Source of the DNA: a virus
Direction: 5' to 3' (one strand)
IMG/VR virus record: IMGVR_UViG_3300045110_000186
Location: 1 to 25,876 of that record
DNA: 25,876 nucleotides
Shown here: one piece after another, positions 9,101 through 25,876 of the stretch
Layout of the letters: each line of letters starts with the position of its first letter
Numbering within the stretch: position 1 is the first letter of the stretch
The notes under the pieces: generated by a model
Databases searched by the model: none
The model's input: only the letters and a program-made list of their open reading frames with translations
Told to the model about the DNA's origin: nothing
Program-made: the position numbers and the translations under genes

Positions 9101-12100
9101 TCAGATCCTCCCCTTCCGGCGGGCCGAGTCGACAGCCCTGACCAGCCAGTTCTCCAGCTCGAGGCGGGACCCGATGACACCCCGGTTCTCCAGCACCAGG
9201 GTCACGCCACCGCCGCGGCCGCGGCCGGAGGGGATCACCTGCTCCGGCCGGCCGGTGTTATTCACCGCGACGCTGACGCCGGGGGGCAGCCAGCCGCCCT
9301 GGTCAAATCTGATACCCGAGGCGATCAGCTGGGACGCTACCGGGTCCGACGCCCACGGCAGGTACCCGCCCGACCTGTACAGGGCGATCGCGGCACGCGT
9401 GTTGTTCGACGCGTTCAGCAGGTTCCCGTACAGGCCGCCCTGGCTGATGCCCGAGGTGGGGGTGATCTGGTACAGGCCGTAGCCGGTCAGGCCGGGCGGC
9501 TGCCCCTGCTGGACGGCGGACGGGTCATCGCCGGATTCCGCGAACGCGATCCGCGCCATGTTCCCCGCGGCCCGCGACGCGCCGCCGAGCGACGTCCACA
9601 GCCCGGAGATCTGCCCTGGGGACATGACCCCGCCGGTCGCGCCGCCGGCGGCCTTCCCGAAGCCGCCCGGCGGGACGCCGGTGAACATCAGCGGCAGCGC
9701 CCCCGTCAGCGGCATGAGCTGCGGGCCCATCCCGCCGCCCTGGCTGATCACCATCGACCCGTCCTTGATGATGGCCACATGGCCGGGAGGCGCCCCGCCG
9801 GCCGGGGAGTTGTAGAACGCCAGGCCGCCCGGCACCGCGCCGGACCGCTTCACCCACGCACCCTGCGCCTCCGACGTCCGGGGAGCGGCGATGCCGTGCC
9901 GGCCGTAGATCGTTTGCACGAACCCGGAGCAGTCGGCCCCGCCAGGAACAGCAGTCCCGCCCCACACGTACGGGATCTTCCCGACCCACCGCAAGGCGTC
10001 AGCGACGATGGCGTTACTCGACCCGCCGAAGCTGAGGAGCTTCTTCACCGCGGCGGAGAGCAGCTTGCCGGGCATGGCGGTCAGCATGCCGGCCAGGGCC
10101 GGGGCAGCGCCGCCCGTGCCGCCGCCGAGGAGATCCCTGAACGCGTTGGTGGCGGCCGTGCTTTTCCCGGTGACGACGGCGGCCAGGATCTTGCCGAGGT
10201 CCCCGATCTTGCCCAGGACAGATCCCAGGGGGCCGAGAGCGGGACCGCCGACGGCGCCGGCGCCGGTGTGGAGGTTGACCGGCGGGTTCTGGCCGACACG
10301 CCCGCCCGCCGCATACCCGGGAACGCCCAGGGCGGCGAACGCCGGGGCGAGGACACGGGAATGGGCGGCGGACACGACCGTCTCGTTCCTGGACGCGCGT
10401 ATCAGCACGTTGTCGGCGGCCGGCCCGGTTCCCTGCGTGATCTTGCCCCCGGCGGCGAACTTCGGCAGCCCCGGGACCTGCGAGATGTTCGGGCCGCCCA
10501 CCTTGGACGACACCCAGTCGAACGCGGAGATCAGCCGGTCGATCACGTTGATGATCACCCAGTTGACGGGACTGCGGACGGCGTTCGCGACGGCGCGCCA
10601 CGCGCCGGTGATGATGGTCACGGCGGTGCGGAACGCGTTCGGCAGCGTGATCGTGAACAGGTTCGCCACCGGGGTGATGAAATTCTGGTGCAGCCAGTCC
10701 TTGACGGAGTTGAACTGCGTCTCCACGTTGTGGCCCAGCCGGATCAGGCTGCCGATCGTGTTGGAGAACACTGTGTTCCACGTGGAGCCGATGTCGTGCC
10801 GGATCCCGTCGAAGATGTTCGCGGTGGAATGACGCAGCGAGTTGAACTGGGTCTCGACGTTGTGGCCGATGCGGATCGCGGAGCCGACGGTATTGCTGTA
10901 GATCTTGTCCCAGATGGGCGCGGCGTCATGCCGGATCCCGTCCCAGGTGTTCGCGATGTGATGCCGGACGTCGTCTTCCCAGGACAGCAGCGAATGGCGG
11001 ATCTTGGAGACGATCAGGTCGGCCCATCCCTGCGCGGACTGGGCGATGAACCCGAGGCCGCCGAAGTTGAACCAGCCGGGAATGTCCCTGATGATCCCCT
11101 TGAACCCGGACTGGAGGTCTTCGCGGATTTTCAGGATGATGCCCGCGGCGATGGCCGCGCCGGCGGCGGCCGCGGGCCCGGTGATGCCAGCCCCGGCCGC
11201 GCCCAGCCCGACCAGCTTGATCCCGACGGACACCACGCCCGTCTTCTGCAGGATCAGCATCGCGGCGGCCGCCTGCGCCAGCGGCTTGGCCAGGCCCGGG
11301 GGGAGCTTCGCGACGAACCCCAGGAAGTTCGACATGGCCTGCAGCTCGAGGAGCCCCCCCGCTGTCAGGCCCGGCGCGAGGGCCTTCAGCGCCCCGCCGA
11401 CGTTCTTCAGGAACGTCCCGACGGCCGGGCCGTTCTGGGAGAACCACCGCAGGAACGACTGGATCTCGTCAGCGGCTTTCTTGCTCGATGCCCACGTCGC
11501 GAACGCGGGCCCGATCCGGGAAATCCACCCGACCGCCTCCCGGATCAGCGGGTCGAACTGCGGCAGCAGCGTGATGAAACCCTGGAAGAAGTCGATCAGG
11601 GTGGTGCCCAGCGCGGACACCGACGCCGTCCCGGTCGACCCGATGAAGTCCCGGAACCCCTTGAACGCGGCCGAGCCGATCAGCGCGTCGAACTTGGTCC
11701 CCAGGTAGGCGATGACCGGGGCGATCTTCGCGATGATCGGCGCGAGGTTGCCGGTCAGGTCGGTGACGGACTTGAGCCACGGCACCAGCGCCCCCGCCAC
11801 GACGGGGGTCTCCTTCGCCTTCACGTCATCCCACGCGGATGCCATCGCCCCGAGCTGCTTCGACAGGGCGATCTGCGCGGGGGACAGCCCGGCGTACGCC
11901 TTCCCGATCGCGGCCTGCTCCGCCGCGTACGCCTTCGCGTTGAACGTCCCCGCGTTCGTCGCCGTGTTGTACGCCAGCTGGTTCTTCGCCAGGGCCAGGT
12001 GGAACGCGGCCAGCGCCGCCGCTGGTTTCGCGCCGCCCTTCAGCGCCGCGGCGTAGGTGAGCTGCGCGTTAGCGTTGGCCTGCTGCAGGGTGGCGTGCGC

Positions 12101-12691
12101 CTGCGCTGTCGGCACCCCGGCCTTCAGCGTCGCCTGGTACGTGTTCTGCGCGGCGTTGACTGCCTGCGACGCTTTCAGCGCGTCGGACAGGACCGGTTTG
12201 GCGACCGCCCCGAACGCGGCCAGCGCGCCGCCCGCGGCGACGACCGCCCCGCCCAGCCCGATGACCGCGCCCGTCGCGACACCCGCCGCGACGCCGACAG
12301 CCGGGAGAAGCGCCACCGCCGGGCCCAGCAGCCCCGGGCCGCTCAGCCCCTTCAGCGCATCCCGCGCCTTTTTATGCGCCGCCGCAGACTCCAGCGCCGC
12401 CTTCGCGGACTTCTTCTCCGCCTCCGCTTCCTTTTTCAGCGCGAACTCGGCCTCGAGCGCCCCGTCCCGCAGGCCGTCCTCGGCTTCCTTGAGGATGTCG
12501 TCGGCCTTGGCCAGCGCCAGCGTCGCCCCGACCGACGTGGCCGCCGCCTTGCGCTGCTTCTCGATCGCGTCCGCGCACAGCCGGGCACCCTTCCCGGCCA
12601 GCGTCGCGTTATCGGCGGTCTTGCGGAAGTCCCTGGCAAGGGCATCCGCGCCGGTGGAGGTGAAGTCGAAGTTAACCTTCTGGTCGGCCAC
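9101..12691 (-). CDS. Tape measure protein with NlpC/P60 and lysozyme-like domains (1196 aa)
   Basis: Longest gene of the window, between chaperone and minor tail genes. Residues 1-110 are charged coiled coil; about 120-180 is a hydrophobic Gly/Ala/Val region; then long Ala-rich helices. Residues about 580-670 contain two tandem copies of a roughly 43-residue Trp-containing unit (IRHD...SNTxGSxIRxGHNVETQFNS), a known tape measure repeat style. Residues about 900-1005 are an NlpC/P60 peptidase (Cys921 in ADCSGF, His971 in GHVAII). About 1045-1160 is a lysozyme/transglycosylase-like domain (Glu1052 in AFAESGDD, then GYGLYQITPTSG). At about 0.15 nm per residue the length predicts a tail of up to about 180 nm, less if the enzyme end is not used for measuring. 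The start is GTG at 12691. Confidence 0.93.
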   Translation of the reverse strand: MADQKVNFDFTSTGADALARDFRKTADNATLAGKGARLCADAIEKQRKAAATSVGATLALAKADDILKEAEDGLRDGALEAEFALKKEAEAEKKSAKAALESAAAHKKARDALKGLSGPGLLGPAVALLPAVGVAAGVATGAVIGLGGAVVAAGGALAAFGAVAKPVLSDALKASQAVNAAQNTYQATLKAGVPTAQAHATLQQANANAQLTYAAALKGGAKPAAALAAFHLALAKNQLAYNTATNAGTFNAKAYAAEQAAIGKAYAGLSPAQIALSKQLGAMASAWDDVKAKETPVVAGALVPWLKSVTDLTGNLAPIIAKIAPVIAYLGTKFDALIGSAAFKGFRDFIGSTGTASVSALGTTLIDFFQGFITLLPQFDPLIREAVGWISRIGPAFATWASSKKAADEIQSFLRWFSQNGPAVGTFLKNVGGALKALAPGLTAGGLLELQAMSNFLGFVAKLPPGLAKPLAQAAAAMLILQKTGVVSVGIKLVGLGAAGAGITGPAAAAGAAIAAGIILKIREDLQSGFKGIIRDIPGWFNFGGLGFIAQSAQGWADLIVSKIRHSLLSWEDDVRHHIANTWDGIRHDAAPIWDKIYSNTVGSAIRIGHNVETQFNSLRHSTANIFDGIRHDIGSTWNTVFSNTIGSLIRLGHNVETQFNSVKDWLHQNFITPVANLFTITLPNAFRTAVTIITGAWRAVANAVRSPVNWVIINVIDRLISAFDWVSSKVGGPNISQVPGLPKFAAGGKITQGTGPAADNVLIRASRNETVVSAAHSRVLAPAFAALGVPGYAAGGRVGQNPPVNLHTGAGAVGGPALGPLGSVLGKIGDLGKILAAVVTGKSTAATNAFRDLLGGGTGGAAPALAGMLTAMPGKLLSAAVKKLLSFGGSSNAIVADALRWVGKIPYVWGGTAVPGGADCSGFVQTIYGRHGIAAPRTSEAQGAWVKRSGAVPGGLAFYNSPAGGAPPGHVAIIKDGSMVISQGGGMGPQLMPLTGALPLMFTGVPPGGFGKAAGGATGGVMSPGQISGLWTSLGGASRAAGNMARIAFAESGDDPSAVQQGQPPGLTGYGLYQITPTSGISQGGLYGNLLNASNNTRAAIALYRSGGYLPWASDPVASQLIASGIRFDQGGWLPPGVSVAVNNTGRPEQVIPSGRGRGGGVTLVLENRGVIGSRLELENWLVRAVDSARRKGRI

Positions 12692-13425: not shown

Positions 13426-13899
13426 TCAGGCTCCCTTGCGCGTCGCGCGGTTACTGACGTCTTCCAGCGCCCGCTCGATCCCGGCGCGGACCCGGGGGGT
13501 AGCGGCCTCCGCCGGGCCGGTGAACCAGCCGGGCCGTACCGACGGCTCCTCCTGCGTGTACCAGTGCTCACGGTCCCCGAACAGGGGATGGGTGAGCCGG
13601 CCCGCGTCGAGGTAGCGCAGCTTCCGCGCCTTCGCTTGCGCCGCGCCGGTGATGGATACGCCCGGGTTCCGGTCGCTGGTGCGGACGCTGACGCCGATCC
13701 GCACGTCCTCGTCCAGGGTCGCGGCGTACCGCTTCGGCAGGTGGCCCGGGGTCAGCCCCGCCCGGATCTCATCCGGCACGCCATCCACCGCCCCGCGCAT
13801 CCCCGCGGTGAGCTCCCGGACGAGCTCGAACTCGCCCGCCTGGCGTAGGTGCCGGGCGATCGACTCCAGCTCCGACGCCGCCTCGACCATGCCCGGCAT
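13426..13899 (-). CDS. HK97 gp10-like head-tail/tail completion protein (157 aa)
   Basis: Pattern of the HK97 gp10 family of head-closure or tail-completion proteins: an N-terminal helix pair (IARHLRQAGEFELVRELTAG), LPKRYAATL, a strand with VSVRTSDRNPGVSI, then LDAGRLTHPLFGDREHWYTQ and PGWFTGPAE, with a C-terminal helix. ATG at 13899 shares one base with the major tail stop (TGATG); an upstream ATG at 13920 lies inside the tail tube gene and is less likely. In most siphoviruses this family precedes the tail terminator and tail tube; here it follows the tube gene and precedes the chaperone, an unusual order. It probably acts at the neck or in the tail completion complex. Confidence 0.78.
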   Translation of the reverse strand: MPGMVEAASELESIARHLRQAGEFELVRELTAGMRGAVDGVPDEIRAGLTPGHLPKRYAATLDEDVRIGVSVRTSDRNPGVSITGAAQAKARKLRYLDAGRLTHPLFGDREHWYTQEEPSVRPGWFTGPAEAATPRVRAGIERALEDVSNRATRKGA

Positions 13900-14327
13900 C
13901 AGGTGTTGATGCCGCCCCACTGGGTGTACCGGACCACGGGCCCGGCTGCCGCCCAGGTGGCTTTGAAGTTAACGGGGCCGCTGACTGCCCCGTCGGCGCT
14001 GAAATCGCACAACACGAGGCCGTAGAAATAAGACGAAGGGTCGTTCGTTGCGTCCCAGTAGAGGTAGAACGACCTCGAAAGTCCGTCGGAGGCGGCGACG
14101 TAGGTCTGGCTGGTGCCCGCGTCGAGGAAGCCGCTGAAGTCGCCCGAGGCATCAGGCAACCCGCCCACATATGTCTTGTTAGCGTCGGAAAATGCCGTCA
14201 CCTCGTCACGGTCCGAAGCCTTGTTGATGGACCAGGCTGCCTGGAAGGGCAGGGGGGCGGCAGCGCCGCCGGAGGCGATGGCGAGGTAGACCTGCCCGTT
14301 CCGGCCGTGCCTGCGGTTGCTGGGCAT
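13899..14327 (-). CDS. Major tail (tube) protein (142 aa)
   Basis: Small beta-rich protein matching actinophage major tail proteins: GQVYLAIASGGAAAPLPFQA followed by WSINKASDRDEVTAFSDANK, a GGLPDASGDFSGFLD segment, SFYLYWDATND and GPVNFKATWAAAGPV. These give the tube-monomer beta-sandwich features, with the conserved D-x-x-x-x-T-x-F-x-D-x-N-K element near residue 40. It lies where the tail tube gene is expected, ahead of the gp10-like protein, chaperone and tape measure. The ATG at 14327 is preceded by TAGGGAGAA, formed by the end of the glycosyltransferase gene. At 142 aa it lacks an extra C-terminal Ig-like domain. It could be a substrate of the adjacent glycosyltransferases. Confidence 0.85.
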   Translation of the reverse strand: MPSNRRHGRNGQVYLAIASGGAAAPLPFQAAWSINKASDRDEVTAFSDANKTYVGGLPDASGDFSGFLDAGTSQTYVAASDGLSRSFYLYWDATNDPSSYFYGLVLCDFSADGAVSGPVNFKATWAAAGPVVRYTQWGGINT

Positions 14328-14339
14328 TGGCGTTTCTCC

Positions 14340-15395
14340 CTACATGTTGACGGGCTGCCGGTCGAGCAACCGGAGCAGTTGTTTGGCGTGCTCGGTGAAC
14401 GTGCGGTCCTGAATGGCCGCGCGGGCCTTGGCTGCGGCTTCCTGCCGCTGATCCGGGTGGGTGAGCGCCCACCGGATCTGGTCGCTGGCCTCGGCCGGGC
14501 TCGAGAACGACGGGAGCATCGGGAACAGCTCGTCGGATTCGGGGCGCGGATCGCGGGCGAAGAACAGGCCGCAGGCGGCCATCTCGATCTCGCGGGGACC
14601 GCAGGCGTATCCCTCGCCCACGTGGGTGTCCTCGGCTTCGGTCCGGTACACGTTGATCCCGGTGCGGGACCTGCGGTAGAGGTCCGCGGTGTTGGTGTTG
14701 TCGATGCAGTCGTCGGATTCCAGCGCGGTCCAGTCCCGCATGGGGGAGTCTTCGGGGAGGTCCATCCACAGGCCGCGGAGGGTGACGTGGAGGCCGCCCA
14801 GGTTCATCTGGTGGAAGAACGCGACCCGGGAGGGGAACCCGGTGCCGACGAACCCCAGGTCCCACGTCAGGGGGGAGCCGGGCGGTGCCGGGTAGTGGAT
14901 TCGCTCCCGGTACGCCTGCGGCATGTACTCGGCCGGGCCGACCTGCCGGTACTTCTCGATATCGCACGGATCGTTGAGGAGGGCCAGGTCGGCGTAGGCG
15001 GCCATCTTCAGCTGGAAGTCCGTCTGATACGGGCCCTCCGTGAAGATCATGACGATCTTGTGGCCGCGGGCGCGGAGCACTTTCAGCAGCCATTCCGGGA
15101 CGAAGAACGCCGACACGCATACGATCACGTCGGGCCACCACCGGTACGCGGCGCCGAGGATCCCGTCGGCGGCGAGCTGGTTGGCTTCGCTGCGGTTCAG
15201 GAATTTCCGCACCTCGCGGCATCCGCATGGCAGGATCCCGCCGGTTTCCGCGTGCGTCGCGTTGTAGAACCGGAGCCGGGCGTCGAGTTCGTATTCCTCG
15301 ACCTGCTCGCCCAGTGAGGTGAGTGCCTCTGACCAGCCGTTGAACACGTCGGAAACGGACCACGACGGGCCGGGCTGAATGAGCAGCCAGCGCAA
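14340..15395 (-). CDS. CgeB-like GT-B glycosyltransferase (351 aa)
   Basis: Resembles GT-B glycosyltransferases of the CgeB/Glyco_trans_1 type. Residues 1-170 form the acceptor-side Rossmann-like half (MRWLLIQPGPSWSVSDVFNG, PDVIVCVSAFFVP, KIVMIFTEGPYQTD). The second half has WDLGFVGTGFPSR, a Tyr-Arg-Arg-Ser-Arg-Thr-Gly-Ile-Asn element and the family signature VGEGYACGPREIEMAACG, whose E-x-x-x-x-G end binds the donor nucleotide sugar. CgeB of Bacillus modifies the spore surface; phage relatives are thought to decorate virions or DNA. The gene begins with TTG (15395) after GGGAG and ends 12 bp before the tail tube gene. Donor sugar and acceptor are unknown. Confidence 0.8.
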   Translation of the reverse strand: MRWLLIQPGPSWSVSDVFNGWSEALTSLGEQVEEYELDARLRFYNATHAETGGILPCGCREVRKFLNRSEANQLAADGILGAAYRWWPDVIVCVSAFFVPEWLLKVLRARGHKIVMIFTEGPYQTDFQLKMAAYADLALLNDPCDIEKYRQVGPAEYMPQAYRERIHYPAPPGSPLTWDLGFVGTGFPSRVAFFHQMNLGGLHVTLRGLWMDLPEDSPMRDWTALESDDCIDNTNTADLYRRSRTGINVYRTEAEDTHVGEGYACGPREIEMAACGLFFARDPRPESDELFPMLPSFSSPAEASDQIRWALTHPDQRQEAAAKARAAIQDRTFTEHAKQLLRLLDRQPVNM

Positions 15396-15767: not shown

Positions 15768-15835
15768 GTGACGCGCCAGGCGCAGATGACGGCGACGCCG
15801 GCGGCGGACTGGCGGGTGATGTGCCAGGCAGCGGC

Positions 15836-17941
15836 TCACGTCGGGCCTCCTGTCCGCTGGTCGGTGGCTGTGAGGGTGCCGCCTGCCGTGCCGCCGGACG
15901 CGGTGGCGGCGGTGAGGGCCCCGGCGGGGGTGTCGGCGGCGGTGAGGGCACCGACGGTGAATGGCAGTGCCCCGAATGGGACGCCGGTTCCGGTGAGGAC
16001 GGTGACGAGTGCCGCCTGCCCGGCGGTGCGGGCGGCGGCGGCCAGGGTGCCTGCCGGGGCGGCGGCCAGGACGGGGGCGGCGGCGCCGGTAGCATTGGCG
16101 GCGCTTGCCAGCGTCCCTGCCGGGCTGACGGCGGTGACGTGCGCGGCGGCGCCGGTGACGTTGACGGGGCTGGCGGCGGCGCCCTGTCCCCCGGCCGCGG
16201 TGACGGCGGCTGCTGTGCCGGTGACTGCGGCGCCGGCGGACGGCACCCCTGCCGGTGCGGCTACGGTGACCGGTGCGGCGACGCCGGTGACGTTCGCGGC
16301 GCCGGAGACGCCCCCGAACGGGACACCCGCAGGCGCTGCCACTGTCACCGGGGCTGCCACGCCGGCGACGTTCGCGCTGGTGTTCAGCGTCCCCGCGGGC
16401 GCCGCCATCGTGACCGGCGCGGCCAGCCCGGTGACGTTCGCGGCGGCGGACACGGTTCCCGCAGGCGCTGCGACAGTGACGGCGGCTGCTGTGCCGGTGA
16501 CATTCCCGCCGCCCGATGGGGTTCCCGCGGGCGAGGCCACGGTGACCGGCGCGGCGGTGCCGGTGACTGCGGCGCCGGCTGACGGCACCCCGGCAGGCGC
16601 TGCCACCGTCACCGCAGCCGCGATACCGGTGACGTTCGCGGCACCGCTGGCCCCGCCGAACGGGACACCCGCAGGCGCTGCCACCGTCACCGGGGCCGCG
16701 ATACCGGTGACGTTGGCACCGCTAGACGGCACCCCGGCAGGCGCTGCGACAGTGACGGCGGCCGCGGTACCGGTGACGGCCGCGCCGCTTGCCGGGACCC
16801 CGGCGGGGGACGCTACGGCCGCCGGCGCAGCCGTGCCAGAGACGTTTCCGCTGGCCGCGGGGATACCCGCCGGGGCTGCGGCGGCGACCGGGGCCGCTGT
16901 CCCGGTCATCGTGGCGGCACCAGACGGGGTGCCCGGCGGGGCGGCGGCAGTGACCGCAGCCGCGATACCGGTGATGTTCGCGGCGGCGGCCAGGGTGCCC
17001 GCCGGGGCGGCCACCGTCACCGGGGCCGCGATACCGGTAACGGCTCCTGCACCGGCGGCCGGCGGTGCTGCCGGAACCGTGGGTGCCTGCGGGTGATGGA
17101 AGTACCGGCGCCAGACCTGGCCGGGCTGCGCCTGCGCGGCGGTTTGCGCGGGGGTTTCCGGGCCGCCGAACAAATCGGTGAACGTGGCGGGGAAGAAGTC
17201 GGGTGGCGGGGCGATGACTGGCGGCAGGGACGGGGCCTGCGGGTGGCGGAAATGCCGCAGCCACGTCCGGCCGGGCTGGGCTTGCTGCAGGGGCGGCAGC
17301 ACGGCAGCGGCGCCGGCCACCTGCGCGGTCCACACCCCGGAATACCCGGACTGGCTGCCGGCGGCCAGGGATGAAACCTGCTGGGTCCAGGTCAGCCCGC
17401 CGCCGGACACGGTGATGACGGTGGACCCGTTCGCGTCAGCGGAGACGATCGCCACCAGCAAACTGCCAGCTGGCGGAGTGAACGCCGCCGAGGTCACCGT
17501 CGTCGCGGCCGTGCTGGAGACAGCCGCCGGGCTGGACCCGTCCACGGTGATCGTCCCGGACGGCAGGATCTCCAGCAGCGCCGTCTGCCCGCCGACCGTC
17601 GGGGCGGACGCCCCGATCGTCGTCGCGCCGGGCGTCCCGGTCGCGCTGGTCGCGAAACACGACGCCAGGTACTCCCCGTTCGGGACGTCCTGGACGTTGT
17701 CGGCGATCGTGGTGAGCCCGTTAGCGGTGAACGCGGTAGCGCTGGAGCTGGACTTCAGCGCCCCGTACACCCGGCTGCCGGTGGCCGTGGTGGTGATGCT
17801 GACCTGCTGGGCGGCGTTCCCCCCGAAGGTGGCGGTGGCCCTGCCCGCCTGGGAGGCCGCCGTGCCGGTCAGGGCATAGACCCGCAGCAGGACCCCGGCG
17901 AACGTAGAGCCGCTTTCCGCCGCGGTGACGGTGATGCTCAA
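15836..17941 (-). CDS. Ala/Pro/Thr repeat-rich structural protein (701 aa)
   Basis: Residues 1-225 hold two beta-rich segments resembling actinophage exposed tail or Ig-like modules (TFAGVLLRVYALTG..., FTPPAGSLLVAIVSADANGS). Residues 225-290 contain two copies of a QPGxxWxRxFxHPQAP motif, seen in many actinobacterial and actinophage proteins. From about residue 299 to near the end there are roughly sixteen copies of a 22-residue unit, consensus ANVTGxAAPVTVAAPAGVPS, two of them with a four-residue FGG insertion. The repeats suggest an extended beta or polyproline stalk rich in Thr/Ser. It lies between the tailspike and CgeB-like genes, making it a candidate fibre and glycan acceptor. Start TTG 17941 after AAGGACGGTGAG. 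Confidence 0.8.
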   Translation of the reverse strand: MSITVTAAESGSTFAGVLLRVYALTGTAASQAGRATATFGGNAAQQVSITTTATGSRVYGALKSSSSATAFTANGLTTIADNVQDVPNGEYLASCFATSATGTPGATTIGASAPTVGGQTALLEILPSGTITVDGSSPAAVSSTAATTVTSAAFTPPAGSLLVAIVSADANGSTVITVSGGGLTWTQQVSSLAAGSQSGYSGVWTAQVAGAAAVLPPLQQAQPGRTWLRHFRHPQAPSLPPVIAPPPDFFPATFTDLFGGPETPAQTAAQAQPGQVWRRYFHHPQAPTVPAAPPAAGAGAVTGIAAPVTVAAPAGTLAAAANITGIAAAVTAAAPPGTPSGAATMTGTAAPVAAAAPAGIPAASGNVSGTAAPAAVASPAGVPASGAAVTGTAAAVTVAAPAGVPSSGANVTGIAAPVTVAAPAGVPFGGASGAANVTGIAAAVTVAAPAGVPSAGAAVTGTAAPVTVASPAGTPSGGGNVTGTAAAVTVAAPAGTVSAAANVTGLAAPVTMAAPAGTLNTSANVAGVAAPVTVAAPAGVPFGGVSGAANVTGVAAPVTVAAPAGVPSAGAAVTGTAAAVTAAGGQGAAASPVNVTGAAAHVTAVSPAGTLASAANATGAAAPVLAAAPAGTLAAAARTAGQAALVTVLTGTGVPFGALPFTVGALTAADTPAGALTAATASGGTAGGTLTATDQRTGGPT
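15970..17047 (-). repeat. About sixteen tandem 66-bp coding repeats
   Basis: The C-terminal half of the 701-aa gene consists of direct repeats of about 66 bp, each coding for the 22-residue unit, with 24 bp of extra sequence in total from two four-residue inserts. Units diverge at many synonymous and some non-synonymous positions, so they are not exact copies. The repeat makes the opposite strand open for over 1.3 kb. Such arrays are prone to copy-number change by recombination. Confidence 0.85.
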
Positions 17942-17977: not shown

Positions 17978-19705
17978 TCACAGGACTACCCAGGTCCAGG
18001 TCGGAGCCGAGGTGTAGGTGAGCACGATCGACTTCCCGGACGGCAGGAAGAATGTCTGCCCCACGCCGCTGCTGGCCAGGGTGATGCCGGTTGCGGTGCC
18101 GTCGATGGTGACCGCGCAGGTGGACGCCCCGGGGGTGATCGCGATCGCGGCATCCCGCCAGAACGGGTTCTGGAACGAGACCGTGGTAGCGGGAACCCCC
18201 GGCGCGGTGACGTGGCCGGGGGCCAGGTCGCCGTCGATCACCTTCAGCTTGGTCATGCCGCCGTTGAACGTGTAGGTGCTGCCATTGCCCCGCAGCAGCA
18301 CCTGCCCGCGGATCAGGCTGTTCGGGTCGGAGATGACGTACTTGGGGGAGCCGACCCCGCCGTCGACGTCGAGCGTGCCGATGTCGATGCAGATCGTGTC
18401 GGTGCCGCCGATGCAGCCGAGCTGGATGTTGTTGGACTCGCAGCACCAGTAGTGCAGCCGCGTGTTGTGCAGCATCCCGCCGCCGCTGGTGGTGGAGAAC
18501 AGGCCGATGCCCATCACGTTGTTCAGGGTGAACCCGCGGGAGCCGGACACGTGCTCGGACAGCGCGAGGCCGTACCCGTACCCGGAGGCGACGTAGTTGT
18601 CGATGAACGGGTTGCCGTCGTTGGACGTGGTGGGGGTCCGCAGCCCGAACGTCCACTGGTTTCCCACGGAGATGTTCGTGGTCGGGTTGGCCATGTCCGG
18701 CGGGGCGGCGAACGTCACGCAGGACAGCGACCGGATGCCCATCCCGATGCAGCCGTAGCAGTCGACCGCGGAGTAGGTGCCGTTGTACGGGGTGACGACG
18801 GTCAGGCCCTGGAAGACGGGCCGGAAGTTGGAGAACACGCTGTCGCCGGCGCCCTGCTGGTGGGTGTACCCGCCGAACACTGACGCCGGCCCGAAGGTGA
18901 CGTGGTTGGTGCCCAGCGTGGTGGCGCAGTTGACGACCGCCGCGCCCGCGACGATCGGGGTGGAGTTCAGCCCGTAGTGGATCAGCGGGGTGTCCGGGAT
19001 GCCCTCGAACACGATGGTGATCTTCGGCTTGTTCATGGCGACGAACGGGAACGGGATCTGCGCGTTCCCCGGCCCCCACGACGCGTTCCCCTGGACCAGG
19101 GCGCCGGCGACCATGTAGATCTTCGGGAGGAACTGGATGACCGCCTCCAGCGGCCCGGCCAGCGCGTATGCGTACGCGGCCTGCACCGCGGAGTTGATCG
19201 CGGCGGTGCAGTCGGTGCCGAAGCAGATATACGCGGATGACACCGTGACCAGCGCGTTAGTGCTGAGCGTGACCACCGACGCGCTGGTGAACCCGGTGAT
19301 CGTGGCGACCAGGGTGTTGCCGGTCAGGGTGGCCGACCCGGCGTTCTGCACCAGGACGTACTTGCCGACATCAGTAGAGACGAACGGCGTGGACGTTGCG
19401 CAGGTCAGGGTGGCGGTCCCGGTGGACATGGCCCCGTCCGTGACGATCTTCCCGTCGCCCACGTTCGACCCGTACGCCTCCGGGTGGAAGTCCCGGGAGT
19501 CGTCCATCATCTGGCCGGCCTGGATGGCCTGCACTGCGGCGACGGCCGCGGTGGCGGGCGGGACCGGGGACAGGTTCGGGGACCCGCCGGCCTGCGCGAT
19601 CACCGCGGTGAGCAGCCCGAGCATGTCCGCGATGTTGTTGTGGACGACCGTCGTGTGCCCCGGGTCGCCGACCTGCTGGGTGTCTGACGGGATGACCTGC
19701 GCCAT
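17978..19705 (-). CDS. Beta-helix tailspike / receptor-binding protein (575 aa)
   Basis: The N terminus (MAQVIPSDTQQVGDPGHTTV, then HNNIADML) is the short anchoring signature found on many actinophage tail fibres and spikes. Residues 70-190 include a DCTAAINSAVQAAYAYA segment typical of the start of right-handed beta-helix (pectate-lyase-like) spikes. Residues 190-480 have repeating short strands with Asn, Gly, Thr and Ser turns. The end (TFFLPSGKSIVLTYTSAPTW and the last few residues) is a small beta domain often seen at the C terminus of actinophage fibres. It may bind or degrade a surface polysaccharide; no catalytic set could be assigned by eye. It follows the 208-aa protein by 4 bp. Confidence 0.8.
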   Translation of the reverse strand: MAQVIPSDTQQVGDPGHTTVVHNNIADMLGLLTAVIAQAGGSPNLSPVPPATAAVAAVQAIQAGQMMDDSRDFHPEAYGSNVGDGKIVTDGAMSTGTATLTCATSTPFVSTDVGKYVLVQNAGSATLTGNTLVATITGFTSASVVTLSTNALVTVSSAYICFGTDCTAAINSAVQAAYAYALAGPLEAVIQFLPKIYMVAGALVQGNASWGPGNAQIPFPFVAMNKPKITIVFEGIPDTPLIHYGLNSTPIVAGAAVVNCATTLGTNHVTFGPASVFGGYTHQQGAGDSVFSNFRPVFQGLTVVTPYNGTYSAVDCYGCIGMGIRSLSCVTFAAPPDMANPTTNISVGNQWTFGLRTPTTSNDGNPFIDNYVASGYGYGLALSEHVSGSRGFTLNNVMGIGLFSTTSGGGMLHNTRLHYWCCESNNIQLGCIGGTDTICIDIGTLDVDGGVGSPKYVISDPNSLIRGQVLLRGNGSTYTFNGGMTKLKVIDGDLAPGHVTAPGVPATTVSFQNPFWRDAAIAITPGASTCAVTIDGTATGITLASSGVGQTFFLPSGKSIVLTYTSAPTWTWVVL

Positions 19706-20364: not shown

Positions 20365-20874
20365 TCAGCTCATCGTGAAGAAGGCGAGGCCGTTCGGCGT
20401 GCCCGCCACGGTGTACGTGTACGCCCCGGCCGTCGACGACACCGTCACCCCGAAATCGACGGTCACGATGACGATGGAACTGGCGTCCGCCGCCGCCGCC
20501 TTCGCCGTCTTGTCATTGATGAACATCGTCCGGGCCGAGATGGACGCCGCGCCGCCCCCGAACGCGATCGGCGCCGGGGAGGTGCAGGTCCAGGAGACGA
20601 TGTTGTCGTTGGTCGCCGCCTGCTGCGTGAACGTCAGCGTGGTCAGCGCGACCCGGCCCGCGAAACCGGCGGTATACGTGCCGACCGTGGCGATCTCGGT
20701 GTAGGCCGTGGTGATGTCCGAAGCGAACTGGCGGCCCCACACGGTGCCGGTCGTCCACGCCGACGAGTCACCCGTGCACAGCCCGGCGGTGAACGTGTCG
20801 GTGGTCAGGTTCACCGCGGTCGCGCCGACCATCGCGACAATGGCCTTCGGGAGAACGTGGCTGGTCACGGCCAT
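20365..20874 (-). CDS. Probable exposed structural protein (169 aa)
   Basis: Begins MAVTSHVLPKAIVAMVGATA and continues as Thr/Ala/Ser-rich beta sequence with few charges, a Trp-Thr-Cys-Thr element in the middle and a short YTYTVAG strand near the end. The pattern resembles the small structural proteins often paired with actinophage minor tail genes, with their N-terminal LPKAI...VNLTTDTF segment. ATG at 20874 follows GGAGAGGAAA. It is one of three consecutive genes (169, 208 and 575 aa) with similar composition, probably all virion surface components. No catalytic motif or membrane helix was seen. Confidence 0.68.
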   Translation of the reverse strand: MAVTSHVLPKAIVAMVGATAVNLTTDTFTAGLCTGDSSAWTTGTVWGRQFASDITTAYTEIATVGTYTAGFAGRVALTTLTFTQQAATNDNIVSWTCTSPAPIAFGGGAASISARTMFINDKTAKAAAADASSIVIVTVDFGVTVSSTAGAYTYTVAGTPNGLAFFTMS

Positions 20875-21191: not shown

Positions 21192-22628
21192 TCAGCCTCC
21201 CGTGGGCAGTTCAATCCCGATGTTCGACCCGTCCGACGCGCCGCCGATGCCCGGCGACCCGGGGGCCAGCGCGAACCCGGCGAACGTCGACGGGACGGAC
21301 CCGCCGGCGAAGACCGGCGTGCCGGTGATGTCCCCCGCGCCGGTCCCCTGGTCGTAAGCATCCCCGCAGGCGACAGAGCACAGGTTGTGGTTCTCAAGGT
21401 AGGTGGCATTCAGGCCGCCGTCGCCGTTCGCGACGCTGACGTAAACGTTGTCGCGGATCACCGTGCCGGACCCCGCGCCCTCAGACGTCTTGCCGCCCAG
21501 CATGACCTGCCCGATCGGGCCGGCCTCCCCGGTCCCGGCCTGGAACACGTTATGCGCGATGACAGAGTTGCTGTCATCCATCACCGCGATGTCCTGATAG
21601 CACCCGTCCGCGCCGGCCGCCCCGCCGGCGTGGCTGATCACGTTGCCCTCGAACACGTTGTCATGGCCGCCGTCCCACTCCGACCAGCCGCACGTGGCCA
21701 CGTCCTTCTGGTCGTGGAACCAGTTGCCCCTCATCACGTTGAAACCGTGGTCGCCGTAGTTGAAGATCGTGTCCGCGTGGATCGACTCGTTGATCCGGTT
21801 GTCCAGGCCGGTGAACTCGTTGCCGATGATCTGCGTCCCGGCACCCGCCATGATGTAGATGTCGGTCATGTCGCCGCCGGAGAACAGGTTGTTGCTGATC
21901 GTCAGCCCGATGATGTTCGCCGTGTTCACGTTGTTGAAGTCGACCCAGATCCGGCCGCCGTTACCCAGGGTGCCGGGGAACGTGTCGTGGTCGATGAGGA
22001 CGTTCGCGTGGTTCCAGGCATCGGTCCGCAGGTCGATCAGGCCGGGGCTTACTGTCGAGTGGGTGATAGCCAGGTCGTGGGAGTTGCCGTTGATGAACCC
22101 GCTGGTGACCGTGACCCCGGTGACGGTCACGAATGTCACGTTGTTCCAGTTCAGCGACATGGAGACGGCCGCGCCGGACTGCGGTTCGACGGTGACCATG
22201 CCGGTCTTGGCTCCCCCGCCGAACTGCCCGTAGTTGCCGGAGGCCAGGCACACCGTCTGCCCTGGCTGCGCGGCGGCGAACTGCGCGGCGAGATCGGATG
22301 TGGTCGCGTTCAGGTCGCATGACGGGGAGGACGTGCCTGTCGGGCTCGGGGACGGGCTGGTTGAGGTAGGTGCCGGGCTTGGCGACGGGGACGCCGCGGT
22401 CGGGCTAGGCGAGGCGGACAGGGCAGCCTGCCCCGCCCACTGCACCGGCGTCGCCGACGCCGCGCACGACGGCACGGACGTCACCGACACCCCCGTGATC
22501 CGCCCGTTCGCCAGGCACCCCGCCACCGTCACCGGCTGCGTAGCAGATGCCGCCGCGAACCCCGCCGCCCCGCCGGCCGCCAGCACGGCAGCCACGGCAA
22601 TCACGGCAACGCGGAACTTCCTGGGCAC
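21192..22628 (-). CDS. Secreted right-handed beta-helix protein with signal peptide (478 aa)
   Basis: The N terminus (MPRKFRVAVIAVAAVLAAGG) has a basic start and a hydrophobic core ending near an Ala-rich cleavage region, a classic signal peptide or anchor. A Cys-containing segment (about 35-65) and a Ser/Pro linker (about 70-100) follow, as in actinobacterial secreted enzymes. Residues 103-478 are a parallel beta-helix with repeated Asn/Gly/Asp turn motifs (NWNNVTFVTVTGVTVTSGF, NVFEGNVISH, NSVIAHNVFQ), resembling pectate-lyase or NosD-like CASH domains. I chose GTG 22628, ten codons inside the longer frame, because GGAG lies upstream and it gives a proper signal peptide. A secreted protein inside a virion-protein operon is unexpected. 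It could be a cargo gene altering the infected cell surface. Confidence 0.78.
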   Translation of the reverse strand: MPRKFRVAVIAVAAVLAAGGAAGFAAASATQPVTVAGCLANGRITGVSVTSVPSCAASATPVQWAGQAALSASPSPTAASPSPSPAPTSTSPSPSPTGTSSPSCDLNATTSDLAAQFAAAQPGQTVCLASGNYGQFGGGAKTGMVTVEPQSGAAVSMSLNWNNVTFVTVTGVTVTSGFINGNSHDLAITHSTVSPGLIDLRTDAWNHANVLIDHDTFPGTLGNGGRIWVDFNNVNTANIIGLTISNNLFSGGDMTDIYIMAGAGTQIIGNEFTGLDNRINESIHADTIFNYGDHGFNVMRGNWFHDQKDVATCGWSEWDGGHDNVFEGNVISHAGGAAGADGCYQDIAVMDDSNSVIAHNVFQAGTGEAGPIGQVMLGGKTSEGAGSGTVIRDNVYVSVANGDGGLNATYLENHNLCSVACGDAYDQGTGAGDITGTPVFAGGSVPSTFAGFALAPGSPGIGGASDGSNIGIELPTGG

Positions 22629-22722
22629 GAGACTTTGTCTCCGTTCTCCCCGCTCCACAGGTTCAAACGGACAGGTTCACGCAGGTCAGATCACCCGGAA
22701 GACTCAGCGTGCCCCCCTGCTT

Positions 22723-23325
22723 TCAGTGGAAGTAGTAGTCGCCGGTGACCTCCGGCACGCGGACCCACGTGGCACCCGCGGCCATCCACCGGGACACCAG
22801 GTCCCAGTCGATCGTGGGGATCCCCGGGAACCACCGCCACGTCGCCACGTCGAGGAGTTCCCGGCGGTGGATGATCATGGACGTGTCGATGTGGCCCTCG
22901 GCTGGCGGGTCGGAGCCGATCAGGTACTCGCCGCGGCCGTGAACATGCGTCTTCCCGTACGCAAACGAGGCGCCGCTCTCCTCCAGCGCCTGCACCAGCA
23001 GCCGCACATGCCAGGGGCGCCACGAGTTGTCGTCGTCGAGGTAGGCGATGTAGTCGCCTTTGGCCAGGTCGAGGCCGTGCAGCCGGGCGTAATGCCCCCA
23101 CTGGGCGTCCGGGTCGTGGGCGGGGAGCTCGGCGAACCGGGTCACGGCGGCCCACGCGGACCGGCAGGCAAACTCTTCCCGCAGCACCGGATCCGGGCCG
23201 TCGGAGACGACGATGTGCTCGATGGCCGGGTAGTCCTGCATGGCGACGGACGGGACGGCCCGGTTCAGCAGCAGGTCGTGGCGCTGCCACGTGGGGCTTA
23301 CGGCGGTTACGAGCGGGTCAGCCAC
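22723..23325 (-). CDS. GT2-family (GT-A) glycosyltransferase (200 aa)
   Basis: The N-terminal Rossmann-like donor domain shows VTAVSPTWQRHDLLLNRAVP, QDYPAIEHIVVSDGP (the usual strand and nucleotide-contact region) and the metal-binding YLDDDN (Asp97-99 by this start). DTSMIIHRRELLDVATW and IPTIDWDLVSRW follow, the latter providing the acidic base region. At 200 aa it is shorter than typical GT2 enzymes, a compact single domain without membrane helices. The start is taken as GTG 23325, 19 bp inside the end of the epimerase gene; a GTG at 23379 would add 18 residues that only shadow that gene. It probably adds a sugar, perhaps produced with the upstream epimerase, to a virion or host component. 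Confidence 0.85.
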   Translation of the reverse strand: MADPLVTAVSPTWQRHDLLLNRAVPSVAMQDYPAIEHIVVSDGPDPVLREEFACRSAWAAVTRFAELPAHDPDAQWGHYARLHGLDLAKGDYIAYLDDDNSWRPWHVRLLVQALEESGASFAYGKTHVHGRGEYLIGSDPPAEGHIDTSMIIHRRELLDVATWRWFPGIPTIDWDLVSRWMAAGATWVRVPEVTGDYYFH

Positions 23326-24149
23326 TGCCGGTACCAGTCGATGGTCTCGGGGACAAGATAGGGCCAGGGGTTCCGGCACACGGGGGCGGTAGCGACCACC
23401 TCGGCGTCCCGGGGCTCACCCGGCCGGGGCGGCGCCTCGGTCAGCTGCCGGGGCCCGGTAAACCCGGCCGCGATGACAATGTCCGCGGCCACCTGCGCCA
23501 CCGTAATCGGCTTGCCGCATCCCGCCTCCGTGACCTGCCCGTAGGGACCGCCGATCGCGTCCACGAGCGCCGCAGCGACGTCCGTGACGTGCACCGGGTC
23601 GACCAGCTGGCCGCCGCCGCCGCACACCTCCAGCGTCACCCTGGACAGAGCCCGGCACGCGAACGTGGGGAAAAACTTATGCACCGACGCGGGGCCGTAG
23701 GGAGGGCCGGGGAGCTGCCCCGGGCCGTACACGTGGTAGGCGCGGCAGATCACGATCTTCTCGCCCAGCCACCGGGCCCGCGCCAGGCCCAGATCCTCGG
23801 CGGCCTGCTTCGTGACCGCGTACGGGTTCAGCTGCCCCCGGTGCCCCGTGCCGATCTGCACCACCGGCACGCCCAGCTCCGCGGCGGCGTCGTACACGTT
23901 GACCGCGCCGACGATGTTGACCTCGCACGCGGCCCGTTCGGAGCCGAACAGCTCCGGGGTGCCGAGCATCCCCGCCAGGTTGATCACCGCGCCCATGTCG
24001 AGGTACCGCAGGGCGTCGGCGATGTCATCGCCGGACCGGATGTCATAGCGCGGCCGGTCGAACCGCACCGGCTCATAACCCCGGCGGGCCAGCTCCGCGC
24101 ACACATGCCCGCCGATGAACCCTGCCGACCCGGTGACCAGGACTTTCAC
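23307..24149 (-). CDS. NAD-dependent epimerase/dehydratase, extended SDR (280 aa)
   Basis: Nucleotide-sugar epimerase/dehydratase of the extended short-chain dehydrogenase family. Dinucleotide site GSAGFIGGH (Gly7 to His15), an Asp31 after the second strand suiting NAD, and the catalytic pair YAVTK (Tyr110, Lys114) are all present. INLAGM (about 56-61) and RAYHVYGPGQ (136-145) are typical elements of GalE/RmlB relatives. It is somewhat short for the family (usually 310-340 aa). GTG at 24149 overlaps the preceding stop by 4 bp. The position beside a glycosyltransferase and methyltransferase suggests it supplies a modified NDP-sugar for the same decoration pathway. The exact sugar change cannot be read from sequence. 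Confidence 0.88.
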   Translation of the reverse strand: MKVLVTGSAGFIGGHVCAELARRGYEPVRFDRPRYDIRSGDDIADALRYLDMGAVINLAGMLGTPELFGSERAACEVNIVGAVNVYDAAAELGVPVVQIGTGHRGQLNPYAVTKQAAEDLGLARARWLGEKIVICRAYHVYGPGQLPGPPYGPASVHKFFPTFACRALSRVTLEVCGGGGQLVDPVHVTDVAAALVDAIGGPYGQVTEAGCGKPITVAQVAADIVIAAGFTGPRQLTEAPPRPGEPRDAEVVATAPVCRNPWPYLVPETIDWYRQWLTRS

Positions 24150-24340
24150 GCGGGATCCTCTCGAACGTACTCGGTGCGGCCGGTTACGCCATTCAGCCCG
24201 GAGAATCTGGTCGTAGCCGCGCGGCCGGCCGGGGCGTTGAATCCGGCGTCACGCTCAGCGCGGCGGAAGTCCTCGAAGCTGACTTCGCGTTCCGGCCGTC
24301 CAGGCTCGGTGACGTAGTACCTGAACCTGGACTCCTTCAC
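24146..24340 (-). CDS. Small charged protein (64 aa)
   Basis: Sits between the methyltransferase and the epimerase with 4-bp GTGA overlaps at both ends, so it is very likely expressed. The sequence is strand-like at the start (FRYYVTEPGRPEREVSFEDF), then a basic helix with many Arg and Glu, ending in a polar segment. No family recognised, no Cys, no membrane helix. It is too short for an enzyme; it may be a regulatory or scaffold partner of the sugar-modifying enzymes around it. This is inference from position only. Confidence 0.65.
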   Translation of the reverse strand: MKESRFRYYVTEPGRPEREVSFEDFRRAERDAGFNAPAGRAATTRFSGLNGVTGRTEYVREDPA

Positions 24341-24864
24341 GCGAGCCCCCGGTACACGGCCAGCGTGTCGACATGCTCCGACGGGCCCTCCGGGAACAGC
24401 GACTCGAGCGCCAGCCGCACACCCGGGCAGCAGCAGTCCTCACCCAGGTCGTGCACGGCCAGGACCCCGCCGCCGGCGAGCAGCTTGCGGGCCGCCCCCA
24501 CGTCCGCCAGGACCCCGGACGCGGTGTGGTCGCCGTCGATGAACACCAGCCCATACGGGCCGCTGAGGCGGTCGAGGGCGGCGGGGGACTCGCCCCGCAC
24601 CACCGTCACCTGCCCGGCCACCCCCGCGCCCTTGAGGTTGGCCAGCATAACCCCATGCGAGTTCAGCCGGTCATGCGGGTCAACCGCCGTCACGTGCTTC
24701 GCCCCGCCCAGGACCATCACCGCCGCGGAGTACCCGAACGCCGACCCGACCTCCAGCACGTCCCGGCCGTCAGCCAGCCGCGCCAGGGTCTCCGCCTCCG
24801 GGCCGGTCAGCGACGTGTTGATCAGGCGGCCGCCTGCGGGCATGTCACGCCACGGCAGGTGCAC
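24337..24864 (-). CDS. SAM-dependent class I methyltransferase (175 aa)
   Basis: Compact Rossmann methyltransferase of the Methyltransf_24/O-methyltransferase-like type. Motif I is VLEVGSAFGYSA (from residue 36), the acidic residue after strand 2 is Asp62 (AVDPHD), and the FIDGDH element (108-113) matches the catalytic, metal-proximal part of such enzymes. A C-terminal CCCPG run (144-148) and an EHVDTLAVYRG ending follow. GTG at 24864 is preceded by AGGAGG formed at the stop of the upstream gene. In phage clusters with glycosyltransferases such enzymes typically methylate sugars (O-methylation); this acceptor is likely but not proven. Confidence 0.88.
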   Translation of the reverse strand: MHLPWRDMPAGGRLINTSLTGPEAETLARLADGRDVLEVGSAFGYSAAVMVLGGAKHVTAVDPHDRLNSHGVMLANLKGAGVAGQVTVVRGESPAALDRLSGPYGLVFIDGDHTASGVLADVGAARKLLAGGGVLAVHDLGEDCCCPGVRLALESLFPEGPSEHVDTLAVYRGLA

Positions 24865-24873
24865 CCGCGCCTC

Positions 24874-25239
24874 CTAGATCGTCGTTGCCTGGCACCCGGC
24901 GCAGCAGGCCGTCATCCGCCGCCGCCAGAACATGTTCGCCCGGGACGGGTCCCCGGCGCCCTTCGTATGCGCGTAGAACACCTTCCCGTCGAGCGCCGCG
25001 TACGCGTGCACCGCCCGGAGGGTCACGTCCTCGAACCCCGCCGGGGCGGTCATGGCGACCTGCCATCCCGGGCCGAGGGCGGCGATGGCGGCCTGGCAGT
25101 TGCCCGGCGAGCCGACGACTCCGGCGGCCTTGTAGTCCAGCGCGGCGGCGAGGCCGGAGGCGTCCAGGGCGGCCAGGTGCTCCGCCACCGGCGCCTCCCA
25201 GGCACCATCCGCGTACACGTGGTAGAAGTGGGCCAGCAT
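24874..25239 (-). CDS. Short glycosyltransferase-like protein with HTKG motif (121 aa)
   Basis: Resembles the N-terminal half of a family of sugar-transferase-like proteins found in polysaccharide clusters: FYHVYADGAWEAPVAEHLAA, a middle strand region, then the key HTKG (in VFYAHTKGAGDP) and NMFWRRRMT. In the longer relatives I recall, the Trp-Arg-x-x-Met segment is followed by another 80-100 residues. Here the protein ends after an unusual Cys-Cys-Ala-Gly-Cys run, and the methyltransferase ribosome site begins in the stop codon, so the second half has been lost or never existed. ATG at 25239 shares one base with the upstream stop (TGATG). Activity on its own is uncertain. Confidence 0.65.
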   Translation of the reverse strand: MLAHFYHVYADGAWEAPVAEHLAALDASGLAAALDYKAAGVVGSPGNCQAAIAALGPGWQVAMTAPAGFEDVTLRAVHAYAALDGKVFYAHTKGAGDPSRANMFWRRRMTACCAGCQATTI

Positions 25240-25476: not shown

Positions 25477-25876
25477 CTAGGTGCCGGTGAACGTGTCGCA
25501 GGCCACGCCGAACTGCACCGTGGCCACGGCGCCGTCGGGGCGCTGCTCCTGCCGCAGCGCATGCGGGCCCATGTGGGCGTCGCCCACCGTCCCGGACAGG
25601 CGGCGGTCGGCCCGGACCACCGCCCCGCACGCAGCGTGCAGCGCATAGGCGCGGGTCCGGGCGGCGGCCATATCGTTCTGGCCGTCCAGGACCATGGCGG
25701 CGCACCGGATCGTGAACAGCTCCCGGTCATCAGCGTCGCCGAAAACCTCCGGGGTCACGGTCGCATCGGCGGCCAGCAGGTCGGAGGGCTGCCCGTACCA
25801 GCCGACCAGGACGGCCTCGAGCGACGGGGAGCCGGTGACGACGGGACCGTCCCGGACGTCGACGCCGGCCAGGGCG
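25477..25876 (-). CDS. Tail terminator protein (partial, cut by window edge)
   Basis: The frame is open to the right edge (at least 132 codons visible, 5' end missing). It matches phage tail terminator proteins: GPVVTGSPSLEAVLVGWYGQ, DDRELFTIRCAAMVLDGQ, AAARTRAYALHAACGAVVRAD and the C-terminal VATVQFGVACDTFTGT strands. The tail terminator caps the tube and connects it to the head. It is the first of the core tail genes in the transcript; the tail tube itself follows only after a roughly 10 kb accessory insert. A GTG at 25758 could be mistaken for the start, but conserved residues continue upstream. Confidence 0.85.
   Translation of the reverse strand, partial: ALAGVDVRDGPVVTGSPSLEAVLVGWYGQPSDLLAADATVTPEVFGDADDRELFTIRCAAMVLDGQNDMAAARTRAYALHAACGAVVRADRRLSGTVGDAHMGPHALRQEQRPDGAVATVQFGVACDTFTGT

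What the first reader, a model, noticed from the sequence alone, without database searches (positions are those of the whole stretch)
15836..17941. Sixteen-copy 22-residue repeat stalk with duplicated HPQAP motifs
About 1.08 kb of 66-bp repeats encode an Ala/Pro/Val/Thr unit, preceded by two QPGxxWxRxFxHPQAP copies. The array is probably an extended fibre. Copy number could vary by recombination and so alter fibre length or host contact. Its Thr/Ser content and position next to glycosyltransferases make it a prime acceptor candidate.
Basis: partly seen in the sequence, partly recalled or inferred. Interest (0 to 1): 0.6.

Follow-up and report, generated by a model that had tools for sequence, protein, structure and literature searches.

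The report
Modular phage surface protein, repeat stalk
The repeat gene is real and belongs to an unnamed family of modular surface proteins in uncultured actinobacterial phages, in which different front ends and different repeat stalks are exchanged onto one conserved C-terminal tail; nothing found shows a quickly changing stalk length, or that the stalk is what the neighbouring sugar enzyme modifies.

Summary
Minus-strand ORF 15836-17941 (701 aa) carries two W/R-rich HPQAP motifs and 16 tandem units (14 of 22 aa, two of 26 aa) at 15962-17041.

It has three parts: a ~210-aa N-terminal domain, a repeat array, and a ~42-aa C-terminal cap (PFTVGxLTA...TGGP). In IMG/VR I found 47 distinct cap proteins. 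Their arrays fall into about 24 sequence groups and their N-termini into about 19, some with apiosidase, PhoD-like or glycosyl-hydrolase domains. In relatives the gene sits directly upstream of the head-tail adaptor; the same slot otherwise holds pectate-lyase-like, K1-lyase-type or GDSL spike proteins. I infer a virion surface appendage that contacts host glycans.

Copy number: units are old and diverged; array L171 matches 11 units in order and spacing; near-identical contig pairs show no unit change. Acceptor: the adjacent glycosyltransferase follows the tail-tube gene (30/30 with one tube type, 0/24 with the other), while cap arrays occur with both. The stalk fold was not confidently predicted; presence on the virion is untested.

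The parts
15836..17941 (-). Modular cap-array protein gene, 701 aa plus stop, TTG start
   Evidence: Open frame; N-domain and cap align with L088 and L100
17306..17941 (-). N-terminal domain, residues 1-212
   Evidence: 54-57% identical to L088 and L100; no Pfam, PHROG, NCBIfam or PDB match
17231..17278 (-). Linker motif copy 1, QPGRTWLRHFRHPQAP
   Evidence: Read directly; related motif in L100, L078, L077, L174
17081..17128 (-). Linker motif copy 2, QPGQVWRRYFHHPQAP
   Evidence: Read directly; same motif family
15962..17041 (-). Array of 16 units (14 x 22 aa, units 6 and 11 of 26 aa)
   Evidence: unit order and spacing partly matched in L171
15839..15964 (-). C-terminal cap PFTVGALTA...RTGGPT
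   Evidence: 29/42 identical to L006 against at most 23 in shuffles; 47 distinct cap proteins
17978..19705 (-). Spike-like protein (575 aa) just upstream, with the start motif of spikes that fill the same slot elsewhere
   Evidence: Alignment A6; 34% identity to L005
14340..15395 (-). Glycosyltransferase GT1 (PF13524) just downstream
   Evidence: Pfam 2.9e-14; follows tail-tube type A, 30/30
13899..14327 (-). Major tail protein, tube type A
   Evidence: phrog_10528, 2.5e-8
22723..25239 (-). Glycan cassette: GT, epimerase, methyltransferase and a gene of unknown function; relatives lie upstream of the array gene in L006's contig
25477..25875 (-). Tail terminator-like gene cut by the contig end
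   Evidence: phrog_22863, 3.8e-19; TTM profile 4e-12

Best explanation
The gene encodes a modular virion surface appendage of an uncultured actinobacterial siphophage. Shown: a ~210-aa N-terminal domain, a recurring W/R linker motif, a 16-unit array, and a short C-terminal cap that is shared by 47 distinct proteins whose arrays and front ends differ. Shown: in relatives the gene lies just upstream of the head-tail adaptor, in a slot that otherwise holds pectate-lyase-like, K1-lyase-type or GDSL spike proteins, and some cap proteins themselves contain glycoside hydrolase or PhoD-like domains. Inferred: the protein is on the particle, probably at the head or neck; the cap (the constant part) attaches it; the array is a spacer; the exchangeable front end contacts or trims host surface glycans. 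It appears to evolve mainly by swapping whole modules rather than by rapid gain and loss of single repeat units.
For: Cap shared with L006: 29/42 identical, shuffles at most 23. Cap found by pattern in many other contigs. Search anchored on the adaptor instead of the cap: 43 of 64 distinct upstream ORFs match the cap by regex (one false positive, L156) plus about five looser caps; 47 distinct cap proteins including the window's. N-domain 54-57% identical among window, L088 and L100 while their arrays are unrelated. Next gene in relatives is phrog_442 head-tail adaptor. Enzyme domains: apiosidase 5.7e-29 and 6.3e-27, PhoD 3.5e-9, GHL15 7.7e-7, phrog_13624 hydrolase 2e-71. N-termini of L093 and L094 match phrog_553/2106 minor tail proteins, L093 also F1 mycobacteriophage minor tail proteins. 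Same slot in other contigs: PF12708, PF24146 (5.3e-24), PF13472. Window gene 17978-19705 shares the start motif of those spikes.
Against: No virion proteomics or structure exists here for any member. AlphaFold models are poor (array pLDDT 62, full length 44) and give no significant structural match. The window is the one cap locus without an adaptor in view, so its own placement is atypical. Enzyme domains were found in relatives, not in the window protein, whose N-domain matches no Pfam, PHROG, NCBIfam or PDB entry. That the cap is the anchor rests only on its conservation.
Confidence: 0.62

Rival explanations
1. Length-variable fibre: the 66-bp array gains and loses units by recombination, tuning fibre length or host contact.
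For: Tandem array of 16 units; array lengths differ between distant relatives, including one step of 18 residues, equal to one unit, between L084 and L086.
Against: Units only 39-80% identical at DNA level, longest exact repeat 29 bp; order and spacing of units 6-16 matched in L171; near-identical pairs without indels.
Confidence: 0.12
2. The array is the glycan acceptor of the neighbouring glycosyltransferases, acting as a sugar-coated stalk.
For: 17% Ser+Thr in the array; GT1 adjacent; a glycan cassette lies upstream of the array in both the window and L006's contig; GT2 (phrog_34859) profile hits in many cap loci.
Against: GT1 follows tail-tube type A 30/30 and is absent with type B 0/24 though cap arrays occur with both; Ser+Thr not different; reported acceptors in mycobacteriophages are capsid and tail-tube proteins (PMC12363180).
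Confidence: 0.15
3. The array is a non-structural or internal protein (for example an assembly or scaffold factor, or a low-complexity drift product) rather than a surface appendage.
For: Low-complexity composition; no confident fold; arrays chemically unlike one another, from acidic to strongly basic.
Against: Cap and N-domain conserved; enzyme domains that fit extracellular glycans; spikes in the same slot.
Confidence: 0.11

Closest known systems
Head fibres and decoration proteins (phi29 gp8.5, T4 Hoc, SPP1 gp12), as reviewed in PMC7602432
   Same: Gene position among head and connector genes in relatives; accessory surface proteins that the review links to carbohydrate binding; elongated forms exist, some collagen-like.
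   Different: No sequence match; phi29 fibre is a coiled coil and Hoc has Ig domains; here the constant part is a short C-terminal cap and the arrays are exchanged.
Phage tailspikes and depolymerases (pectate-lyase-like PF12708, K1-lyase C-terminal PF24146, GDSL)
   Same: Occupy the same slot upstream of the adaptor in sister contigs; some cap proteins also carry glycan-active domains.
   Different: The window protein has no beta-helix or recognised enzyme; cap proteins lack the PPDTRAVG start and carry repeat arrays and the cap.
Actinophage minor tail proteins phrog_553 / phrog_2106 (F1 mycobacteriophages)
   Same: N-terminal region of relatives L093 and L094 matches (3e-18 to 5e-20).
   Different: The window's own N-domain does not match; those families carry no cap in what was seen here.

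Membership tests
Cap-array family defined here | C-terminal cap PFT[VI]GxLTA...TGGP directly before the stop | tested here: met
Cap-array family defined here | Tandem repeat array before the cap | tested here: met
Cap-array family defined here | Gene directly upstream of the head-tail adaptor | tested here: not met
   Window has GT1 downstream and no adaptor in the contig; upstream block matches L171, which does precede an adaptor. Position is usual in the family, not required
Head fibre / decoration protein | Present on the virion head | not testable with these tools
   No virion data
Head fibre / decoration protein | Sequence or fold match to a known head fibre | tested here: not met
   No PHROG, Pfam or PDB match; models too poor for fold comparison
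Tailspike / depolymerase | Beta-helix or glycan-active domain | tested here: not met
   None in the window protein; present in relatives and in slot-mates
Phase-variable repeat fibre | Different unit numbers in near-identical genomes | tested here: inconclusive
   No near-identical contig to the window; other pairs show no change; L171 keeps register over 11 units
Glycosylated virion protein | Covalent glycans on the protein | not testable with these tools
   Only co-occurrence tested; it favours the tail tube

The most novel reading that the evidence does not exclude
A reversed appendage: the short C-terminal cap is a portable virion-docking tag near the head-tail adaptor, onto which uncultured actinophages graft any repeat stalk and any glycan-active front end, so the family is a natural display system whose module swapping drives host-surface specificity.
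Probability: 0.3. Interest if true: 0.72.

Novelty: new variant of a known kind. Interest (0 to 1): 0.52.

Why it matters
It gives a sequence-recognisable family (cap motif plus adaptor neighbourhood) in a phage group for which no cultured relative of the adaptor was found here, and turns a vague 'repeat fibre' into testable parts: which end docks, what the front end binds, and whether stalks are exchanged rather than lengthened. If the cap is a docking tag, it is a small module for displaying proteins on actinophage particles. It also redirects the glycosyltransferase question from the repeat protein to the tail tube.

Tried and rejected
Searches of the N-domain, the array and a whole relative in cultured phages: no match; adaptor and GT1: no match. 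Cap pattern and adaptor profile in GTDB genomes: none, so no host or prophage was identified. Search by the array fails for low complexity. AlphaFold on the full protein and on a five-unit array (rows taken from other unit blocks): low confidence; Foldseek's best hits are mostly beta-solenoids (FapC, CsgA, ice-binding) at E near 1 or worse, not usable. Antisense ORF 15768-17096 (+) with look-alike repeats (antisense self-match E 1e-22): rejected as a gene, since the minus frame alone has the conserved N-domain and cap. Ser/Thr enrichment as a sign of glycosylation: no difference. Literature searches gave precedents but no description of this family.

Full report
WHAT IS THERE. The window is a 25,876-bp IMG/VR fragment with a minus-strand siphophage structural region: a tail terminator-like gene cut by the contig end (25477-25875, phrog_22863, 3.8e-19), a glycan cassette (methyltransferase, nucleotide-sugar epimerase, family-2 glycosyltransferase, 22723-25239), further genes, the repeat gene 15836-17941, a glycosyltransferase (14340-15395, PF13524, 2.9e-14; here GT1), the major tail protein (13899-14327, phrog_10528) and the tape measure protein (9101-12691). 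Third codon positions differ about twice as often between units as first and second positions (0.56 against 0.29), so the units are old duplications kept similar at protein level.

ARCHITECTURE. The decisive clue was the C-terminus. Contig L006, the best tape-measure relative (60% identity), has a 979-aa repeat protein with a quite different repeat but the same 42-residue end: 29 of 42 identical, while shuffled sequences reach at most 23. A DNA pattern for that cap found it at the end of proteins in many other contigs, mostly with arrays of their own: Ala/Gly/Thr units of 18-22 residues, basic Arg/Trp units, acidic Asp units, Pro-rich units. Window, L088 and L100 share the N-terminal domain (54-57% identity over about 207 residues) and the cap, with unrelated arrays between.

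NEIGHBOURHOOD. In relatives the next gene is a head-tail adaptor (phrog_442). To avoid choosing by the cap, I searched with the adaptor alignment: 106 relatives in viral contigs, 80 kept, none in bacterial genomes. Of 64 distinct upstream ORFs, 43 match the cap regex (one, L156, is a false positive) and about five more have looser caps; 36 of 51 ORFs of at least 250 aa are periodic. Altogether there are 47 distinct cap proteins (36 full length), in about 24 array groups and 19 N-terminal groups at the thresholds used. Many of the remaining adaptor loci carry, in the same slot, proteins starting with a PPDTRAVGTGNPPADMN-like motif followed by pectate-lyase-like, K1-lyase-C or GDSL domains. The window gene just upstream of the repeat gene (17978-19705) begins with a recognisable version of that start. 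Cap proteins L080 and L094 contain an apiosidase-like catalytic domain, L099 a PhoD-like hydrolase, L085 a GHL15 domain; in L006's contig an apiosidase-like gene (by resemblance to L080; not scanned) stands alone two genes upstream of the cap gene. Together these facts make a glycan-contacting particle appendage the best reading. Its presence and place on the particle are inferred, not shown.

COPY NUMBER. No near-identical contig to the window was found, so the window itself could not be tested directly. L171 has the same repeat type, and 96% identity to the window in the small gene 20365-20874, though the tape measure is only 33% identical. Aligning its units with the window's gives a best register at offset 1 (mean 0.70 for units 6-16 against 0.53-0.62 at other offsets), with both long units in the same relative places; 1 of 20,000 unit-order permutations does as well. 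Split up, the support lies in the long units and units 12-16 (p = 0.008); units 1-5 and 7-10 alone are not informative. L082 and L085 are 99.4% identical over 352 residues without an indel, and L090/L097 are identical. Between distant relatives arrays do differ in length, including a step of one unit (18 residues, L084 against L086). So copy number is stable on short time scales as far as tested, and variable over long ones.

GLYCOSYLATION. GT1 is found with tail-tube type A in 30 of 30 distinct cases and with type B in 0 of 24; all 29 distinct GT1 genes sit with type A. Cap arrays occur with both. The actinophage precedent I could read is glycosylation of capsid and tail-tube proteins (PMC12363180, citing Freeman et al. 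2023). The tail tube is thus the better candidate acceptor for GT1. A second link remains open: the cassette at 22723-25239 has 69-80% identical relatives upstream of the array gene in L006's contig, so glycan genes and array gene keep company in those two contigs.

GENE ORDER. In relatives with GT1 the order is array, adaptor, terminator, GT1, tail tube. In the window it is terminator, glycan cassette, further genes, spike-like gene, array, GT1, tail tube. The block from cassette to array therefore sits after the terminator instead of before the adaptor. This may be a real relocation or a misassembly; reads would tell.

LIMITS. All relatives are metagenome fragments; some loci come from the same contig, and I removed duplicates only by C-terminal sequence. 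The cap regexes are permissive. No fold could be assigned to N-domain, array or cap. The host is unknown; 'actinobacterial' rests on high G+C and on matches to actinophage families.

Noticed in passing
window 15768-17096 (+): Antisense ORF of 442 aa reads a look-alike Ala/Pro/Val/Thr repeat; the antisense frame matches the sense protein at E 1e-22. Probably a by-product of the codons used.
   Followed up: partly
window 20365-20874; L171 89-598: Small gene 96% identical between two phages whose tape measures are only 33% identical: a sign of recent exchange of the block upstream of the array.
   Followed up: partly
window 22723-25239; L023 530-3141: Glycan cassette of four genes conserved at 69-80% identity in L006's contig but placed differently relative to adaptor and terminator.
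   Followed up: partly
L021 2094-4744: N-domain (257 aa) and array (626 aa) are two adjacent overlapping genes before an adaptor, where the window has one fused gene.
   Followed up: no
L131 4174-5994: Spike-like protein with a K1-lyase C-terminal domain (PF24146, 5.3e-24) in an actinophage-like contig.
   Followed up: no
window 21192-22658: 488-aa protein that looks like a secreted beta-helix protein by eye; only a weak DUF6812 match.
   Followed up: no
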